Shown here in pieces: positions 2,591-35,618 of a DNA stretch of 39,214 nt (position 1 is the stretch's first letter; the number at the start of each line of letters is the position of its first letter). The DNA is from Schwartzia sp. (in: firmicutes) (GTDB lineage: Bacteria; Bacillota; Negativicutes; Selenomonadales; Selenomonadaceae): the NCBI GenBank assembly GCA_017458745.1, contig JAFTAB010000046.1, positions 1 to 39,214 of the forward strand. Reading direction: 5' to 3'. Both the position numbers and the translations under genes were made by a program. The notes beneath the pieces were generated by a model, which saw only the letters and a list, made by a program, of their open reading frames with translations, was not told the origin of the DNA and made no database searches.

Positions 2591-3131
2591 CCTCGATTTC
2601 TTTTTTTGGCTGCTCGTCGTTTTTGTCATTCTCCGGCACATAGTCCTCGTCGTCCTCGGGAATCTTTGCGCTCCTCGGCAGGATGAAGGGGAGGAACATG
2701 GCCTCGGCCGAGAGGAAAGCCGCGCCTAATCCTATAGAGGCGGCGAGCGAGATTCCCGCGTGCAGATGGTCGAGCGTCATCTTGGGCGGGAGAGAGCTCA
2801 TGATGTACTTGATGAAGTAAACGTCGGCGGCTATGACGGCGAGCAGCATTATGGGGCTCATTATGACGAGCCCGATTGGCCAGCCCGTGTCGCGGAGCCT
2901 CCTGACGGTGAAAGCGCACTGCGAATAATATGGCGGTATCGCGAGCGACAGGATAAGGAGAAAGTTGCTGCGCGGCGCGTCCATGAGACGGAGGTAGATG
3001 GCGAGCCCGATGATGACCGACTCTATGATGAAAGTGAAGATTAGCAGCCCAAAATATGGGAGACGCTTCATGCGCCCGCCAAAAGAAAACAGCGCGCCGA
3101 GAGCATCAACGAAGTATCCCAAACGCCTCAC
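2586..3131 (-). CDS. DUF805 family membrane protein
   Basis: The 181-residue product opens with an amphipathic stretch and FSFGGRMKRLPYFG, followed by a hydrophobic segment and the RRLRDTGWP motif. FxFxGRxxRxxYW and RRLHDxGxSGW are the signature pair of DUF805 (YhaH/YhaI-like) inner-membrane proteins. About four membrane segments are visible (roughly residues 26-46, 57-72, 86-108 and 128-152). The tail is very acidic and lysine-rich (DDEDYVPENDKNDEQPKK), presumably cytoplasmic. The molecular function of the family is unknown. It stands alone between a convergent radical SAM gene and an intergenic stretch holding a REP-like repeat. Confidence 0.8.
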   Translation of the reverse strand: MRRLGYFVDALGALFSFGGRMKRLPYFGLLIFTFIIESVIIGLAIYLRLMDAPRSNFLLILSLAIPPYYSQCAFTVRRLRDTGWPIGLVIMSPIMLLAVIAADVYFIKYIMSSLPPKMTLDHLHAGISLAASIGLGAAFLSAEAMFLPFILPRSAKIPEDDEDYVPENDKNDEQPKKEIEE

Positions 3132-3136
3132 CTCGC

Positions 3137-3198
3137 TATAAAATGAGACTTATTCAGTGGGAGGTTTAGACTCCCGCTGACACTGGTCGAATTTATCC
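3137..3198 (+). repeat. REP-like intergenic hairpin repeat, copy 1
   Basis: The unit runs AAAATGAGACTTATTCAG, GTGGGAG-TTTAGA-CTCCCGC, then GGTCGAATTTATCC, with GGGAG and CTCCC able to pair. The same order of blocks recurs at 15363-15425 and, inverted, at 32500-32569; a shortened copy lies at 11941-11978. A second half-unit (CTTATTGAGCGGGAG, then GCCCGTTGGCATCGG) follows at 3224-3262. No coding potential is seen in it. Confidence 0.75.
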
Positions 3199-3349
3199 AT
3201 TGCCTTATGGGTGCTTGACTCCCTCTTATTGAGCGGGAGTTTTAGCGCCCGTTGGCATCGGGAAAAATCATACGATGATATTATACAGGAAATTTTCATA
3301 TATTGTAAAGAAAACTCTTTGTATTGATTCAATAACTTTATCAACAAAA

Positions 3350-3380
3350 AACTCGCAACCGAAAGACGATTGCGAGTTTT
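3350..3380 (-). terminator. Rho-independent terminator of the alanine symporter gene
   Basis: ACTCGCAA (3351-3358) pairs with TTGCGAGT (3370-3377). Read on the minus strand the stem is followed by a run of Ts, 20 nt after the stop codon of the symporter gene. Confidence 0.8.
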
Positions 3381-3400
3381 TGTTGTCGGCAATATTTTGT

Positions 3401-4756
3401 TTATTCTGTACCGCCCTTTCTGCGGTGCTCCATGTAGAGGTGCGTCTCTGAGACTATGACTCCCGCGAGGGCTATGAGCGCGATGAGGTTCGGTATGGCC
3501 ATGAGGCCGTTCACTATGTCGGCGAGTATCCAGATGGCCTCCAGCTTCAGGAAAGCGCCCGAGGCGATAAGCGCGATAAATATGACGCGATAGGGGAGCA
3601 GTCCCCTCGTGCCCGCGAGGTAGATCATGGCGCGCTCGCCGTAGTAGTTCCATCCGAGTATAGTGGTGAAAGCGAACAGCACGAGCGAGATGGTGAGCAG
3701 CTTTGCGCCGAAAGCGCCAAACGCAGACGAGAACGCGTTCGTCGTCATCATCGCTCCCGCCGCGTCGCCATGCCACACGCCCGTCAGCACGAGCGCGAGT
3801 CCTGTCATGGAGCAGATGATGATGGTGTCGATGAATGTGCCGGTCATTGAGATGAGTCCCTGCTCGGCGGGCCACTTCGTCTTCGCCGCGGCGGCAGCTA
3901 TAGGAGCGGAGCCAAGGCCTGACTCATTTGAGAATACGCCGCGCGCAATGCCGTTCTGCATCGCCATCATGATGGTCGAGCCCGCGAATCCACCGAGAGC
4001 CGCATGACCAGAGAAGGCGCTTGTGATTATGAGCGAGAGCGCGTCAGGCACCTCGTTGATGTGCATGGCGATCAGCGCGATGCTGAAAAGGACATAGATG
4101 ACAGCCATGAAAGGAACAATCTTGTCGGCGACATTGGCAATGCTCTTGAGGCCGCCGATGGTGATGGCGGCGATGAGCACGGTCAGCAGTCCGTCGCTGA
4201 CGGCCACCGGTAGACCGAACGCTATATTCATGCTGTCAACAATCGCGTTGACCTGAGGGAATGTGCCGATGCCGAAATACGCGACCAGTACGCATGCGAT
4301 TGCGAAGAACGTCGCCATGGGCGCCCATTTTTCACCCATGCCGTTCTTGATGTAGAACATGGGGCCTCCGGCTACCTCCCCTTTCTCGTCCTTCGAGCGG
4401 AACTTCACGGCTAGGAGACCCTCGGCGTACTTCGTCGCCATTCCGAAGAAAGCGGCAACCCACATCCAAAATATCGCGCCCGGGCCGCCGACCTTGACGG
4501 CAGTCGCCACGCCGACGATGTTGCCCGTGCCGACCGTCGCGGCGAGAGCGACGCAGAGCGCCTTGAAGCTGGAGACATCGCCCTCGCCCTTGTTCTTCGC
4601 CTTGAATATCAGCGTGAGGGCGAGCGGCAGCCTGAACACCTGAATGACTCCGAGCCTGATGGTGAGGTAGATGCCGGTGCCGACCAGCAACGCGATGAGC
4701 GGTGGCCCCCACATGAAGGAGTCTATGCTGTTCAGCATAGGAATGAGTCCTTCCAT
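3401..4756 (-). CDS. Alanine/glycine:cation symporter (AGCS) family transporter
   Basis: A 451-residue polytopic protein, the usual length for the AGCS (sodium:alanine symporter) family. Family signatures visible are FMWGPPLIALLVGTG at the start, TVGTGNIVGVATAV, GGPGAIFWMWVAAFFGMATK, and FSNESGLGSAPIAAAAA in the second half. It should import small neutral amino acids such as alanine or glycine with Na+ or H+. The start at 4756 is set by AGGAGG 9 nt upstream; the longer in-frame extension has no such site. A perfect inverted repeat, TCCACT-gtg-AGTGGA (4778-4792), lies just before the ribosome site and could be an operator or an mRNA hairpin. It is a single-gene unit with its own terminator. 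Confidence 0.92.
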   Translation of the reverse strand: MEGLIPMLNSIDSFMWGPPLIALLVGTGIYLTIRLGVIQVFRLPLALTLIFKAKNKGEGDVSSFKALCVALAATVGTGNIVGVATAVKVGGPGAIFWMWVAAFFGMATKYAEGLLAVKFRSKDEKGEVAGGPMFYIKNGMGEKWAPMATFFAIACVLVAYFGIGTFPQVNAIVDSMNIAFGLPVAVSDGLLTVLIAAITIGGLKSIANVADKIVPFMAVIYVLFSIALIAMHINEVPDALSLIITSAFSGHAALGGFAGSTIMMAMQNGIARGVFSNESGLGSAPIAAAAAKTKWPAEQGLISMTGTFIDTIIICSMTGLALVLTGVWHGDAAGAMMTTNAFSSAFGAFGAKLLTISLVLFAFTTILGWNYYGERAMIYLAGTRGLLPYRVIFIALIASGAFLKLEAIWILADIVNGLMAIPNLIALIALAGVIVSETHLYMEHRRKGGTE

Positions 4757-10004: not shown

Positions 10005-10192
10005 TTGCAAGCCACCGTTTCCCTTTCGCATGAGATGCGCCTGCCGGCGCATAAGCGATTTGCATGAAATCGAAGATTGCGCATCATGCACGCCTCTCTT
10101 AAATTTTAACAGAGAGTAGCATGATGCTTTTTCCTTTCATATTTTACCATTGTATTTGTTGCTCCTGCAAATTAAAAGCGCATAACATTCGG
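10005..10192. other. Intergenic, AT-rich, upstream of the YczE-like gene
   Basis: This stretch holds the promoter region of the minus-strand membrane protein gene and possible N-terminal extensions of it. Beyond that no gene, RNA or repeat was recognised. The ~110-bp island repeat begins at 10193. Confidence 0.4.
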
Positions 10193-10301
10193 GCATCATA
10201 ATTTTTGCATTTGAGATTTAATGACAATGCAGCAGAAGAAAATGGGATAAAAGCGGCTCTACAGAATTATAAAGCATTGATATAATTTGCGTTTTATCCG
10301 A
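10193..10301 (+). repeat. Island repeat, copy 1 (~110 bp direct repeat)
   Basis: It begins GCATCATAATTTTTGCATTT and continues through AATGCAGCAGAAGAAAATGG and GCGGCTCTACAGAATTATAA to ATCCGA. It recurs almost base for base at 11830-11940, on the other side of the DUF4143 ATPase gene, and in a shorter, diverged form at 13564-13616. No reading frame is seen inside. It places the ATPase gene between direct repeats. Confidence 0.85.
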
Positions 10302-10377
10302 TTTCATAGGAATAATGCAAATAATATTGCTTTTTTCATATGAAAAATGCAAATTTTATTGCATTATTCCTATGAAA
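10302..10377. repeat. 76-bp near-perfect palindrome upstream of the ATPase gene
   Basis: The arms TTTCATAGGAATAATGCAAA and TTGCATTATTCCTATGAAA enclose further complementary sequence centred on CATATG (10337-10342). A few mismatches occur in the middle of each arm. It starts directly after island repeat copy 1 and ends 33 nt before the ATPase start. It could be an operator, a long hairpin in the leader, or the end of a mobile unit. Part of its left arm recurs at 11978-12007. Confidence 0.85.
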
Positions 10378-10410
10378 AATGTAAAATCGTTTATGAGGCA
10401 GGTGAGAAAT

Positions 10411-11739
10411 ATGTGGCGGGAGATTGAAAAAAAGCTGCTGGCGTGGAAAAATCGGAGCAATCGAAAACCTTTAGTGCTCGGCGGTATCCGGCAATGCGGG
10501 AAAACGTATTCTTTGCAGTCATTTGGCAGGGAGCAATTTTCAAGCTGCGTCTATTTCAATTTTGAGGCGCAGCCGGGACTTGACTCCATCTTCGCGCAGG
10601 ATTTCGATACCGAGCGGATTATTCGGGAGCTTTCGGGAATCAGCGGCACGCCGATTACAGAGGGCGAGACGCTGGTGATTTTCGATGAAGTGCAGGAATC
10701 GCCGCGCGCCCTCACATCGTTAAAATATTTCTGCGAGGAAAAGCCTGCCTTGCATATCGCGTGTGCCGGCTCGCTTTTGGGGACTTCCGTCCGGCGTGAG
10801 GGATTTTCCTTTCCGGTGGGAAAAGTGGAACGGCTTTTCATGTTCCCTCTGACATTTTACGAATTTGTGCAGGCCAACCGTGGCGGAGAATTGCTGGGCG
10901 TCCTTGCGGGCATGGAATTGGAGCGGGAAATATCGGCCGTTTACGCGGAGCGCATGAAGGATTTGCTGCGGCAATATTTCATTGTCGGCGGTATGCCGGC
11001 GGCTGTGTCCGCTTGGATTGACTCACAAGATTTGCAGGAAGTCGAAAGCGTTCAGGAAAATCTGCTTCGGGATTATGAAAACGATTTTTCCAAGCACGCC
11101 TCGCGCTCGGATATTCCCAAAATCCATATGATATGGAACTCTATCCCCATGCAGATTGCCAAGGAAAACAATAAATTCGTCTTTTCCCATGTCAAAAAAG
11201 GGATTCGTGCGAAAGATTTGGAAGACGCTTTGCAGTGGCTTCAAGATGCCGGGATGATTCACAAAAACGAGTTGGTCGCCAAGCCGGAAATTCCGCTTTC
11301 GTTCGGCGCGGATTCGACATATTTCAAAGTGTTCCTGCCGGACGTGGGGCTGCTTCGGAGACGAGCCAACCTCGCCGCGAGGGATATTATCAGCGGGAAT
11401 GAAAACTACAAGCGATTCAAGGGGGCCTTTGCCGAAAACTATGTGATGACGGAGCTGGCGGCTATGGGCTTCCACCCATATTTCTGGCGTTCCGGCAATA
11501 CGGCGGAAATAGATTTTCTCATCGAGGGCGGGGGCGAAATAATTCCCATCGAGGTAAAGGCGGCTGAGAACGTCAGAGCAAAAAGCCTCGCATTGTATAT
11601 GAGCCGCTATCGTCCGCGTTGCGCGTTCAAGACGTCGCTTAGAAACGTGGGCGTGACGCGGCAGGGGGACACGGAGCTGTGGAGCTTGCCGCTTTTTATG
11701 CTGTGGAAGATTGGAAGGTATTTGGAAGAAAACGCATGA
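10411..11739 (+). CDS. AAA ATPase with DUF4143 C-terminal domain
   Basis: A 442-residue protein from ATG 10411, chosen because AGGTGAG lies just upstream; the longer open frame back to 10315 runs through the palindrome and is not credible. Walker A is GGIRQCGKT (G25, K31, T32), Walker B is LVIFDEVQE (D92, E93), and CAGSLLG is the sensor-like strand. The second half has the DUF4143 pattern, ending with FAENYVMTEL, FWRSGNTAEIDFLIE and IPIEVKA, a nuclease-like fold with E-I-D and E-V-K residues. These proteins are widespread in anaerobes, often in accessory DNA, and their function is not settled. It is flanked by direct repeats and followed by a broken XRE fragment, which points to a mobile or duplicated unit. 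Confidence 0.9.
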   Translation: MWREIEKKLLAWKNRSNRKPLVLGGIRQCGKTYSLQSFGREQFSSCVYFNFEAQPGLDSIFAQDFDTERIIRELSGISGTPITEGETLVIFDEVQESPRALTSLKYFCEEKPALHIACAGSLLGTSVRREGFSFPVGKVERLFMFPLTFYEFVQANRGGELLGVLAGMELEREISAVYAERMKDLLRQYFIVGGMPAAVSAWIDSQDLQEVESVQENLLRDYENDFSKHASRSDIPKIHMIWNSIPMQIAKENNKFVFSHVKKGIRAKDLEDALQWLQDAGMIHKNELVAKPEIPLSFGADSTYFKVFLPDVGLLRRRANLAARDIISGNENYKRFKGAFAENYVMTELAAMGFHPYFWRSGNTAEIDFLIEGGGEIIPIEVKAAENVRAKSLALYMSRYRPRCAFKTSLRNVGVTRQGDTELWSLPLFMLWKIGRYLEENA

Positions 11740-11741
11740 AA

Positions 11742-11824
11742 TTTCTTTTGATACCGAAAAAGGCAAGAAAAGCATGACCGCCATGACGATTGTCAATTTG
11801 GCGGAGGCGCTTTCTGTTTCTTTA
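11742..11824 (+). pseudogene. Remnant of an XRE-type regulator gene
   Basis: Immediately after the ATPase stop codon, codons encode DTEKGKKSMTAMTIVNLAEA then LSVS. This is nearly identical to residues about 39-63 of the XRE protein at 13056-13439 (DIEKGKKSMTAMTIVNLAEA). The DNA match starts near TTTCTTTT, with one base missing relative to the intact gene, and breaks off at TCTTTACTCG just before island repeat copy 2. It has no start and no ribosome site. It is a scrap of a second copy of the regulator. Confidence 0.8.
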
Positions 11825-11829
11825 CTCGT

Positions 11830-11940
11830 GCATCATAATTTTTGCATTTGAGATTTAATGACAATGCAGCAGAAGAAAATGGTATAAAAGCGGCTCTACA
11901 GAATTATAAAAGCAATAGATATAATTTGCGTTTTGTCCGA
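11830..11940 (+). repeat. Island repeat, copy 2
   Basis: About 111 bp, matching 10193-10301 with only a few differences (for example GGTATAAAAG for GGGATAAAAG, and AAAGCAATAGATAT for AAGCATTGATAT). It lies between the XRE remnant and the Fic gene. After it, copy 1 continues into the palindrome, while here a REP-like unit intervenes before the shared AATAATGCAAA segment resumes at about 11978. Confidence 0.85.
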
Positions 11941-11978
11941 TGCCAACGGGTAAATTCGACTGAATAGTCTCATTTTAT
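11941..11978 (-). repeat. Shortened REP-like repeat lying within the duplicated segment
   Basis: Read on the minus strand: ATAAAATGAGACTATTCAG, then TCGAATTTACCCGTTGGCA. These are the two ends of the REP-like unit without its central GGGAG/CTCCC hairpin. It separates two segments that are contiguous in the other copy near 10301, so it looks like an insertion into this copy or an end-joining scar. Confidence 0.65.
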
Positions 11979-12042
11979 GGGAATAATGCAAACGATACTG
12001 CTTTTTCAATTGAGGAAATCGGTCAGGATGACGAAAACGCAT

Positions 12043-12112
12043 CTTTACTTTTTTGCGAGTGTTCCTCCATAAACCTTTACTTTTTTGCGTCAATATTTTA
12101 CAATAAGTAAAG
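12043..12112 (+). promoter_or_regulatory. Promoter and candidate operator of the Fic-XRE operon
   Basis: CTTTACTTTTTTGCG occurs twice as a direct repeat (12043-12057 and 12075-12089, 32 bp apart). The reverse complement of its first eight bases, AAGTAAAG, stands at 12105-12112. A promoter fits inside: -35 TTTACT (12076-12081), a 17-nt spacer, and -10 TACAAT (12099-12104). The second direct repeat covers the -35 and the inverted half-site covers the start region and the edge of the ribosome site. This is the layout expected of an operator bound by one of the two HTH proteins encoded downstream. Confidence 0.65.
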
Positions 12113-12124
12113 GAGGAGTGGCTT

Positions 12125-13042
12125 ATGATTTCTTATGCCGGTATGGACGCGCGCCTGAAAGCGGCGGGTATAACGAAAACCGCGTTGGCGGCGGCTCTTG
12201 GCATTTCCTCGCGGACGATGGCCAAAATTGGCAGGGGAGAAAAACTGTCGCGGCGGACGATGGAAAAAATCTCCGGCTATCTTGGATGCGGCGCGGACGA
12301 GCTGTGCCGGTACATCTCGGACAACGCGATCCTGCAATGCCTGCGGGACGAAAAGGACGCGAGGATTTCCGGCGGCCTGTACCATGAGCTGCAAGTGCGC
12401 TTGACGTACAATTCCAACCATATCGAAGGTAGCCGCCTGACTGAGGCGCAGACGCGCATGATTTTCGAGACGGACACGGTGACCGCCGGGGACGGCGTTC
12501 TCGTGGACGACATCATGGAAACAGTCCATCACTTTCGGGCGATTGATTATGTGATTGACACAGCGGAAGAGCGGCTGACGGAAAAAATCATCAAGCAACT
12601 GCATTTTATTTTGAAGCACGACACAAAAGACGCGCGGCTCCCGTGGTTTGTCGTGGGCGGCTACAAGGCGCGGGCCAACATGGTCGGAGGGCGGGAAACG
12701 ACAAAGCCGGAGGACGTGCCGCGAGCGATGAAAATGCTGCTGGAATCGTACAACGCGAGGGAACGCGTTTCCATCCATGACATCATCGCATTCCATGCAA
12801 AGTTCGAATCCGTCCACCCGTTCCAAGATGGAAACGGCAGGGTGGGCCGCCTGATTGCGCTGAAAGAATGTCTGCGGCATGGTGTTGTCCCCTTCCTTAT
12901 CGAGGACACGAAAAAATACTTCTATTACCAAGGGCTGGCGGAATGGGAAAAAGACCGCACAAGGCTGACGGAAACTTGCCTCGACGGGCAGGGCGCCTTC
13001 CGCCGCTTGCTGGTCATGCTGGGAATCCCCGCAAGCGAATGA
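12125..13042 (+). CDS. Fic-domain AMP-transferase with N-terminal HTH
   Basis: A 305-residue protein, preceded by AAAGGAGGAG. Residues 1-62 form a Cro/C1-like helix-turn-helix (KTALAAALGISSRTMAKIGR). The Fic catalytic motif HPFQDGNGRVGR (H231-R242) is intact, including the catalytic His. An inhibitory helix motif S97-x3-E101-G102 (SNHIEG) lies ahead of the Fic core, so the enzyme is expected to be self-inhibited in the manner of Fic proteins with an internal inhibitory Glu. By family knowledge it would transfer AMP to a protein hydroxyl group; the target is unknown. It is the first gene of a two-gene operon, 13 nt before an XRE regulator. The N-terminal HTH suggests it may bind its own promoter. 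Confidence 0.92.
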   Translation: MISYAGMDARLKAAGITKTALAAALGISSRTMAKIGRGEKLSRRTMEKISGYLGCGADELCRYISDNAILQCLRDEKDARISGGLYHELQVRLTYNSNHIEGSRLTEAQTRMIFETDTVTAGDGVLVDDIMETVHHFRAIDYVIDTAEERLTEKIIKQLHFILKHDTKDARLPWFVVGGYKARANMVGGRETTKPEDVPRAMKMLLESYNARERVSIHDIIAFHAKFESVHPFQDGNGRVGRLIALKECLRHGVVPFLIEDTKKYFYYQGLAEWEKDRTRLTETCLDGQGAFRRLLVMLGIPASE

Positions 13043-13055
13043 AGGGCGGGGTATC

Positions 13056-13439
13056 ATGGATAAGCGACGATTAAATGAAGAAATCGGGGCGCGGGTGCGA
13101 CGGCGAAGAGAAGTTTTGGGGTACACTCGCGAGCAGATTGCGGAGCGGGCGAATATTTCCGTGCAGTTTCTTTTCGACATCGAAAAGGGCAAGAAGAGTA
13201 TGACCGCTATGACGATTGTGAATCTTGCGGAGGCACTTTCTGTCTCGATAGATTTTTGGTTGCTCGGCGCGGAGCAAAATGATGGGCGGTATGGCGTGGA
13301 AGAGAAGAAGGAAAGGCAGAGTGCGAAATGGGAGCAGATGTTTTTGTTGCTACTGCCGGAGCAGAGAGAATTGGCGGAGGAAATGCTTCGGCTTTTTGTG
13401 CGCGGCGTGAGCATGAGCGGCAAGGCGAAGAATCACTGA
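13056..13439 (+). CDS. XRE-family transcriptional regulator
   Basis: A 127-residue protein. Residues 6-62 are a classic Cro/C1 HTH (VRRRREVLGYTREQIAERAN, then ISVQFLFDIEKGKK), and the rest is a charged helical tail with LLLLPEQRELAEEML. The ATG at 13056 follows GGGCGGGG, 13 nt after the Fic stop, so the two are almost certainly co-transcribed. It probably represses the operon through the CTTTACTT sites and may act as partner to the Fic protein. A fragment of a near-identical gene lies at 11742-11824, showing that the unit was once duplicated. Confidence 0.88.
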   Translation: MDKRRLNEEIGARVRRRREVLGYTREQIAERANISVQFLFDIEKGKKSMTAMTIVNLAEALSVSIDFWLLGAEQNDGRYGVEEKKERQSAKWEQMFLLLLPEQRELAEEMLRLFVRGVSMSGKAKNH

Positions 13440-13555: not shown

Positions 13556-13563
13556 TTATTGTT

Positions 13564-13616
13564 GCATCATAATTTTTACATTTACGATTTTATGACATTG
13601 CAGTAAAATAAAAGCA
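13564..13616 (+). repeat. Island repeat, partial diverged copy 3
   Basis: GCATCATAATTTTTACATTT followed by a diverged form of the GACAATGCAG block. It covers only about the first half of the 110-bp unit and marks the right side of the Fic-XRE section, as copies 1 and 2 mark the ATPase. Confidence 0.7.
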
Positions 13617-21540: not shown

Positions 21541-21649
21541 TAAAATCTGCATTTTTCGTGAAACCCCTCCGGCGCTTTGCGAGAAACACTCCACTGGACT
21601 GTTTCTCCCCTTTCAGGGGAGGCTTGGTACTGCACTTGCCAACAAAAGC
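21541..21649 (+). mobile_element. MITE-like element, copy 1 (unit a)
   Basis: A start block TAAAATCTGCATTTTTCGTG is followed by CCCCTCCGGCGCTTTGCGAG, AAACACTCCACTGGACTG, TTTCTCCCCTTTCAGGGGAG and GCTT. The same blocks occur in the same order at 31053-31171 and, inverted, at 35462-35610. No transposase is encoded, so it would be moved in trans if at all. Confidence 0.65.
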
Positions 21650-31016: not shown

Positions 31017-31052
31017 CTATGACCATTCAATTTGATATTCTATATTGATGAT

Positions 31053-31171
31053 GGCAATCTCTAAAAACTGTTTTTTGTAAAACTCAAAACTCCTACGGCG
31101 CTTTGCGAGAAACACTCCGCTGGACTGTTTCTCCCCTGAAAGGGGAGGTGCCCGAAGGGCGGAGGGGTTCA
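31053..31171 (+). mobile_element. MITE-like element, copy 2
   Basis: GGCAATCTCTAAAAACTG at the left end, then CGGCGCTTTGCGAGAAACAC, TCCGCTGGACTGTTTCTC, CCCTGAAAGGGGAGG, and GCCCGAAGGGCGGAGGGG at the right. It matches the reverse complement of the complete copy at 35462-35610 over most of its length but lacks the right terminal repeat. It lies between dnaX and ybaB, ending about 14 nt before the ybaB ribosome site. Confidence 0.8.
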
Positions 31172-35461: not shown

Positions 35462-35610
35462 GGGAATCTCTAAAAACTCAAATCTTCGTTTGAACCCCTC
35501 CGCCCTTCGGGCAATCCAAAGCCTCCCCTGAAAGGGGAGAAAAAGTCCAGTGGAGTGTTTCTCGCAAAGCACCGGAGGGGTTTTACAAAAAGCAGTTTTT
35601 AGATGTTGCC
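35462..35610 (-). mobile_element. MITE-like element, complete copy with terminal inverted repeats
   Basis: The left end GGGAATCTCTAAAAACTC and the right end CAGTTTTTAGATGTTGCC are inverted repeats of each other with few mismatches. Inside, in inverted order relative to the copies at 21541 and 31053: CCCTCCGCCCTTCGGGC, CCTCCCCTGAAAGGGGAG, AGTCCAGTGGAGTGTTTCTC and CACCGGAGGGG. Total 149 bp. No open reading frame. Confidence 0.85.
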
Positions 35611-35618
35611 AAAACACA

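What the first reader, a model, noticed from the sequence alone, without database searches (positions are those of the whole stretch)
12043..13439. Self-inhibited HTH-Fic protein with XRE partner and structured operator
A Fic enzyme with intact HPFQDGNGRVGR and an internal inhibitory SNHIEG is itself fused to an HTH, and is encoded with a second HTH protein. Two CTTTACTTTTTTGCG repeats and an inverted AAGTAAAG overlie the promoter and ribosome site. A modifying enzyme that also reads its own promoter, with a separate repressor, would be an unusual toxin/antitoxin-like circuit. This is the best candidate in the window for a little-described system.
Basis: partly seen in the sequence, partly recalled or inferred. 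Interest (0 to 1): 0.6.

Follow-up and report, generated by a model that had tools for sequence, protein, structure and literature searches.

The report
Self-repressing DNA-reading AMP-transfer (Fic) enzyme
This gene encodes a self-inhibited AMP-transfer enzyme fused to a DNA-reading domain, and its relatives in bacteria and phages keep the same paired DNA sites over their own promoter, so it very probably switches itself off; the second regulator next to it is a chance neighbour.

Summary
In detail: an intact HTH_26-Fic protein (12125-13042), an XRE gene 13 nt downstream, two CTTTACTTTTTTGCG repeats and an inverted AAGTAAAG. The inverted pair CTTTACTT-N21/22-AAGTAAAG, lying over the -35 and the -10/start region, is upstream of all 19 HTH_26-Fic genes first examined and all 13 of a later hold-out set (identity down to 57%; bacteria and phages), and of none of 66 Fic relatives without this HTH. 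It occurs once in the window's genome. Fic relatives with a different N-terminal HTH (HTH_17-like) carry a different inverted operator (25/29). So the Fic enzyme itself is very probably the repressor of its own gene. The XRE protein is not part of the system: it is adjacent in none of the other 31 loci, and its closest homologues are stand-alone genes before an unrelated metabolic gene. The closest known case is CccR of Yersinia pseudotuberculosis, a self-inhibited Fic toxin with a C-terminal HTH that represses itself through widely spaced inverted boxes over -35/-10. This is a solitary, mobile, N-terminal-HTH variant of that idea. Binding, AMP transfer and target are untested.

The parts
12043..12057 (+). 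Auxiliary half-site O1 (CTTTACTTTTTTGCG)
   Evidence: Exact repeat. Most relatives have a further half-site about 21-32 nt upstream of O2, in either orientation; it is absent in a few.
12075..12089 (+). Operator half-site O2 (CTTTACTTTTTTGCG), covering the -35 hexamer
   Evidence: CTTTACTT kept in all 32 HTH_26-Fic loci.
12105..12112 (+). Operator half-site O3 (AAGTAAAG), inverted, directly after the -10
   Evidence: Start-to-start distance to O2 is 30 (29 in two loci) in all 32 loci; one mismatch in two of them.
12076..12104 (+). Predicted promoter: TTTACT (12076-12081), 17 nt, TACAAT (12099-12104)
   Evidence: Sequence, with a -10-like hexamer at the same place in all 19 first loci; inferred, not measured.
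12125..13042 (+). HTH_26-Fic protein, 305 aa, class II architecture (inhibitory motif N-terminal to the Fic motif)
   Evidence: Pfam, alignment A1, AlphaFold model pLDDT 92, closest fold C. difficile Fic 4x2d/4x2c/4x2e.
12125..12322 (+). N-terminal HTH_26 (Cro/C1 type) domain, residues 1-66; probable recognition helix residues 29-36 (SRTMAKIG)
   Evidence: Pfam HTH_26; helices in the model; S28 R30 T31 A33 K34 invariant in A1.
12413..12430 (+). Inhibitory motif SNHIEG (residues 97-102; E101)
   Evidence: E101 and G102 invariant among 25 aligned relatives; at the end of helix 85-100 in the model.
12815..12850 (+). Catalytic Fic motif HPFQDGNGRVGR (residues 231-242)
   Evidence: Invariant in A1; all positions but V240 and G241 invariant in the wider A2.
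13056..13439 (+). XRE/HTH_3 gene: neighbour, judged not to be part of the system
   Evidence: Adjacent in 0 of 31 other loci; stand-alone homologues L038-L040 in front of a saccharopine dehydrogenase gene.
11742..11824 (+). Remnant of a second XRE copy (codons about 37-65)

Best explanation
The Fic protein is a solitary, self-contained, self-repressing enzyme. Its N-terminal HTH_26 domain binds CTTTACTT half-sites; an oligomer (most simply a dimer) holds the inverted pair O2/O3, whose centres are 30 bp apart, over -35 and the -10/start region and blocks transcription, with O1 as an auxiliary contact. The Fic domain, held back by its own SNHIEG helix, transfers AMP (and may remove it) when the inhibition is released; the target is unknown and probably a bacterial protein. 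Expression thus stays low at two levels: the protein limits its own gene, and each molecule inhibits itself, so no separate antitoxin gene is needed. The XRE gene was placed behind it by local rearrangement and at most shares its transcript. Shown here: architecture, intact motifs, conservation and specificity of the operator, non-conservation of the XRE neighbour. Inferred: binding, repression, oligomer state, enzyme activity, toxicity.
For: Operator pair in 19/19 HTH_26-Fic loci versus 0/66 other Fic loci (29 HTH_17-like, 2 other HTH_26 type, 35 of the rest); 13/13 hold-out loci with perfect arms at distance 29-30, proteins 57-78% identical. The arms are conserved while most of the spacer drifts. 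Reverse scan of 150 related genomes by operator alone: 9 genomes hit, 7 at an HTH_26-Fic gene, 1 at a Fic remnant, 1 orphan; in viral contigs 3 of 7 pattern matches lie at HTH_26-Fic genes, the others being two copies of one other intergenic site and two sites inside coding sequence. Fic fusions with a different HTH carry a different wide inverted operator (25/29), and the remaining Fic genes show wide inverted repeats of at least 9 nt near background rate (2/29). The HTH_26 fusion forms one clade (100/100). Precedent: CccR is shown to auto-repress through inverted boxes 26 bp apart near -35/-10 (PMC9755527).
Against: No binding or activity data. The HTH_26-Fic loci are one clade, so operator and gene could be co-inherited through another shared constraint, such as a host factor. 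O1 varies in position and orientation and is missing in some loci. Arms with centres 30 bp apart are wide for a Cro/C1-type HTH, though they are 36 bp apart in CccR.
Confidence: 0.78

Rival explanations
1. Two-gene toxin-antitoxin-like circuit: the XRE protein is the repressor and/or antitoxin of the Fic enzyme.
For: 13-nt gap and the same strand, so co-transcription is likely here; XRE/HTH_3 proteins are common antitoxins (family knowledge; weak NCBIfam similarity to HipB/HigA-type models, below their cut-offs).
Against: No XRE homologue in any of the other 31 HTH_26-Fic loci; XRE homologues at 78-88% identity are stand-alone; in G054 and G228 both genes exist on different contigs; the sequence before XRE keeps a homologue's leader (GAAGGGCGGGGTATCAT, as in L039), so the end of fic abuts an existing XRE leader; Fic already has a cis inhibitory helix.
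Confidence: 0.07
2. The operator belongs to a host regulator, not to the Fic protein.
For: Binding is not tested; all HTH_26-Fic loci are one clade.
Against: The dyad occurs once in the window's genome; it is absent upstream of Fic genes with another or no HTH, including ones in the same family; it travels with the gene into phages and several bacterial families.
Confidence: 0.1
3. The inverted repeat acts in the RNA as a hairpin controlling translation.
For: In the window O3 runs into the ribosome site.
Against: O2 overlaps the -35 and would lie outside the transcript from this promoter; in most relatives O3 does not touch the ribosome site.
Confidence: 0.03

Closest known systems
CccR (YPK_0951), Yersinia pseudotuberculosis (PMC9755527)
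   Same: Class II Fic enzyme with its own HTH; represses its own promoter through two widely spaced inverted boxes (AGATAATCAT-N26-ATGATAATCT) near -35 and -10; toxic to bacteria.
   Different: C-terminal HTH, SoFic-like overall fold, T6SS effector in an effector locus; here an N-terminal HTH_26, CdFic-like catalytic domain, solitary gene, boxes CTTTACTT-N22-AAGTAAAG, no secretion link seen.
C. difficile Fic protein_0569 (CdFic; PDB 4x2c/4x2d/4x2e)
   Same: Closest solved fold of the catalytic part (TM 0.91 normalised to 4x2d_A, about 30% identity over 234 columns); serine/glutamate inhibitory motif at the same place.
   Different: Its 235-residue chain aligns from window residue 67 on, so it lacks the HTH_26 domain; sequence identity is low.
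PADLOC candidate PDC-S04
   Same: Fic part matches PDLC04836 (E 5e-98), as do all 14 aligned relatives.
   Different: The match starts after the HTH; defence is a prediction. One PDC-S04 tested in its native host showed no defence (PMC12409345).
CbFic2, Coxiella burnetii (PMC10628234)
   Same: Fic plus HTH, N-terminal inhibitory helix; DNA binding stimulates (de)AMPylation.
   Different: DUF4172 and a C-terminal winged HTH; acts on histone H3; no own-promoter operator described in the passages read.
FicTA (class I Fic toxin-antitoxin)
   Same: Fic AMP-transferase under inhibition by a serine/glutamate motif helix.
   Different: There the helix is on a separate antitoxin protein; here it is in cis.

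Membership tests
Fic AMP-transferase superfamily | HPFx(D/E)GN(G/K)R active-site motif and Fic fold | tested here: met
   HPFQDGNGRVGR; Pfam Fic E 2.7e-15; model matches Fic structures.
Class II Fic | (S/T)xxxE(G/N) inhibitory helix N-terminal to the Fic motif in the same chain | tested here: met
   SNHIEG 97-102 at the end of helix 85-100.
Class II Fic | AMP transfer that rises when the inhibitory glutamate is lost | not testable with these tools
   Needs an assay.
Auto-repressing HTH-Fic (CccR type) | HTH in the same chain | tested here: met
   HTH_26, N-terminal.
Auto-repressing HTH-Fic (CccR type) | Wide inverted boxes over own -35/-10 | tested here: met
   32/32 loci.
Auto-repressing HTH-Fic (CccR type) | Shown binding and repression | not testable with these tools
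   Needs EMSA and a reporter.
CccR orthologues | Fic domain followed by a C-terminal HTH | tested here: not met
   HTH is N-terminal; the chain ends about 60 residues after the Pfam Fic match and no HTH family matches there.
Class I FicTA / two-gene toxin-antitoxin | Conserved separate antitoxin gene | tested here: not met
   XRE not conserved as neighbour; inhibitory helix is in cis.
PDC-S04 phage-defence candidate | Match to the model | tested here: met
   E 5e-98; membership is by sequence only, function unproven.

The most novel reading that the evidence does not exclude
A family of solitary AMP-transfer enzymes with interchangeable N-terminal DNA readers (HTH_26 or HTH_17-like), each carrying its own matching inverted operator, in which operator DNA acts as the antitoxin: binding the promoter locks the enzyme inhibited, and loss of operator DNA or of promoter occupancy (for example when an invading phage alters the chromosome) releases AMP transfer.
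Probability: 0.15. Interest if true: 0.75.

Novelty: new variant of a known kind. Interest (0 to 1): 0.46.

Why it matters
Class II Fic proteins are said to be about 80% of Fic proteins, with almost nothing known of their functions (CccR paper, PMC9755527). That makes the regulation of dozens of uncharacterised Fic genes, including phage-borne ones, predictable and testable, and removes the need to look for a missing antitoxin gene.

Tried and rejected
XRE as partner: rejected on non-conservation. Conserved neighbour of another kind: bacterial loci share none; phage loci share only phage genes. RNA element at the locus: the Rfam scan gave only a sub-threshold microRNA match on a palindrome at the start of the ATPase gene. 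Regulon: no second dyad in the window's genome. Mobile-element reading of the flanking repeats 10189-10353 / 11822-11992 / 13563-13613: the repeats are real, but part of the sequence is a genome-wide dispersed repeat, so no cassette mechanism is claimed. Operator for the second HTH_26 type (L080, L159): L159 has a 15-nt inverted repeat, L080 none; too few to judge. The genus-mate G001 lacks both genes and the gene order there differs, so it gave no clean empty site.

Full report
OBSERVATION. The Fic ORF at 12125-13042 encodes 305 aa with HTH_26 at the N terminus and a Fic domain. It has the cis inhibitory motif SNHIEG (97-102) and an intact HPFQDGNGRVGR (231-242). An XRE/HTH_3 ORF starts at 13056. 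The two exact 15-mers lie at 12043 and 12075, with AAGTAAAG at 12105. TTTACT (12076-12081), 17 nt and TACAAT (12099-12104) make a plausible promoter, so the inverted pair brackets the core promoter: O2 over -35, O3 over the start region, O1 32 nt upstream of O2.

PROTEIN. The model (pLDDT 92, pTM 0.84) shows an N-terminal helical HTH domain followed by the Fic fold, with E101 at the end of helix 85-100. The closest solved structures are the wild type and mutants of a C. difficile Fic protein (TM 0.85-0.93 normalised to the target). E101, G102 and most of the catalytic motif are invariant across 25 aligned relatives, so the enzyme is probably active when released (inference).

WHOSE OPERATOR IS IT? 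Relatives were collected from named genome contigs, unnamed related genomes, phage records and IMG/VR, and classed by N-terminal domain. CTTTACTT and AAGTAAAG, at most one mismatch each and 29-30 nt apart, stand upstream of 19 of 19 HTH_26-Fic genes, and of none of 29 with an HTH_17-like N terminus, 2 with another HTH_26 type, or 35 of the remaining class. Shuffled regions give 2e-4 per locus. Arms are kept while most of the spacer drifts. A later search gave 13 further HTH_26-Fic loci (57-78% identity) as a hold-out: 13 of 13 have the pair with perfect arms at 29 or 30 nt. One of these, L197, is nearly the same as L006, and L004/L005 and L076/L077 are close pairs, so the number of independent cases is somewhat below 32. 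The reverse scan by operator pattern alone over 150 related genomes hit 9: seven at HTH_26-Fic genes, one in front of a broken remnant of such a gene (G070:C57:25030), and one orphan (G089). The dyad is unique in the window's genome.

A SECOND READER WITH A SECOND OPERATOR. The HTH_17-like fusions (Pfam HTH_17 at or just under its cut-off) have their own inverted pair ATCGGCAA / TTGCCGAT, 43-47 nt start to start, typically over the promoter, in 25 of 29 loci; none of the 19 HTH_26-Fic loci has it. Perfect wide inverted repeats of at least 9 nt occur in 18/19 HTH_26 and 17/29 HTH_17-like loci, but in 2/29 of the rest, against a shuffled rate of 2-3%. In a tree of the catalytic domain the HTH_26 fusion is one clade (100/100) that sits among the HTH_17-like lineages; the other HTH_26 type lies elsewhere. 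Because each class is largely one lineage, this is a strong correlation but few independent events.

THE XRE NEIGHBOUR. No XRE homologue lies in any other HTH_26-Fic locus. Close homologues (85, 78 and 88% identity) occur in G228, G035 and G054, each alone with its own promoter region in front of a saccharopine dehydrogenase gene (Pfam PF16653/PF03435). G054 and G228 also carry HTH_26-Fic, on other contigs. The window's XRE leader (GAAGGGCGGGGTATCAT) matches that of L039, so the end of fic abuts a pre-existing XRE leader. A remnant of a second XRE copy (11742-11824) and copies of a flanking repeat show that this spot has been rearranged.

MECHANISM. The best reading is a solitary, self-repressing, self-inhibited AMP-transfer enzyme. 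The published case CccR works in the same way at the promoter: EMSA, footprint, reporter and operator mutants show a Fic protein with an HTH repressing itself through 10-bp inverted boxes 26 bp apart near -35 and -10, needing dimerisation (PMC9755527). CbFic2 shows that DNA can stimulate (de)AMPylation by an HTH-Fic enzyme (PMC10628234). The window protein differs from both in having the HTH at the N terminus and in its catalytic subfamily, so it is a variant, not an orthologue.

ROLE. The gene is sporadic (12 of 189 genomes of the family), has no conserved neighbour in bacteria, occurs in phage genomes, and matches PADLOC's candidate PDC-S04. This fits a mobile accessory gene with a toxin-like or defence role, but one PDC-S04 member tested in its native host gave no defence (PMC12409345). 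Target and trigger are unknown.

VERDICT. Observation confirmed; 'enzyme reads its own promoter' well supported by comparison; 'separate XRE repressor' not supported; 'little-described' fair, but with a direct precedent.

Noticed in passing
window 10315-11739: AAA_14/DUF4143 ATPase matching PADLOC candidate PDC-S01 (E 8e-168), lying just upstream of the Fic gene and flanked by 85%-identical direct repeats of about 165 nt (10189-10353 and 11822-11992).
   Followed up: partly
window 11931-11992 and many contigs of G000: The 3' part of the flanking repeat belongs to a short dispersed repeat with about 60 partial matches in the window's genome.
   Followed up: no
window 10302-10377: A 76-nt nearly self-complementary sequence overlapping the start of the ATPase ORF.
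   Followed up: no
L181 (G070:C57:25030-25067): Full operator followed by a broken remnant of an HTH_26-Fic gene, in a genome with an intact copy on the same contig.
   Followed up: partly
L176 (G089:C124:6088-6125): Operator-like dyad with no Fic gene nearby, in a genome where no HTH_26-Fic gene was found; an orphan site or another use of the operator.
   Followed up: partly
L065 (PV036423.1), L077, L078, L079: Phage genomes carry HTH_26-Fic with the operator, beside a gene on the other strand that looks like a terminase small subunit (judged by eye; no Pfam match in the fragment tested). In PV036423.1 the Fic gene is annotated as hypothetical.
   Followed up: partly
L016-L031, L081-L098, L160, L163: HTH_17-like-Fic fusions with their own conserved operator ATCGGCAA...TTGCCGAT, 43-47 nt start to start.
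   Followed up: yes
L159 (G344): A second HTH_26-type Fic fusion with a different 15-nt inverted repeat (CTTTAGAAAACTAAA) upstream.
   Followed up: no
L006 (OMYP01000023.1) 2776-4306: HTH_26-Fic followed by an AbiEii nucleotidyltransferase gene (Pfam E 1.9e-30) and, before it, an AbiEi-like gene (by eye).
   Followed up: partly
window 21541-21633, 31052-31171, 35491-35611: Another intergenic repeat family of roughly 90-120 nt (79-90% identity).
   Followed up: no
G000:C185:4531-5079 (L002): A second, distant Fic gene (30% identity) without the HTH or operator in the same genome.
   Followed up: no
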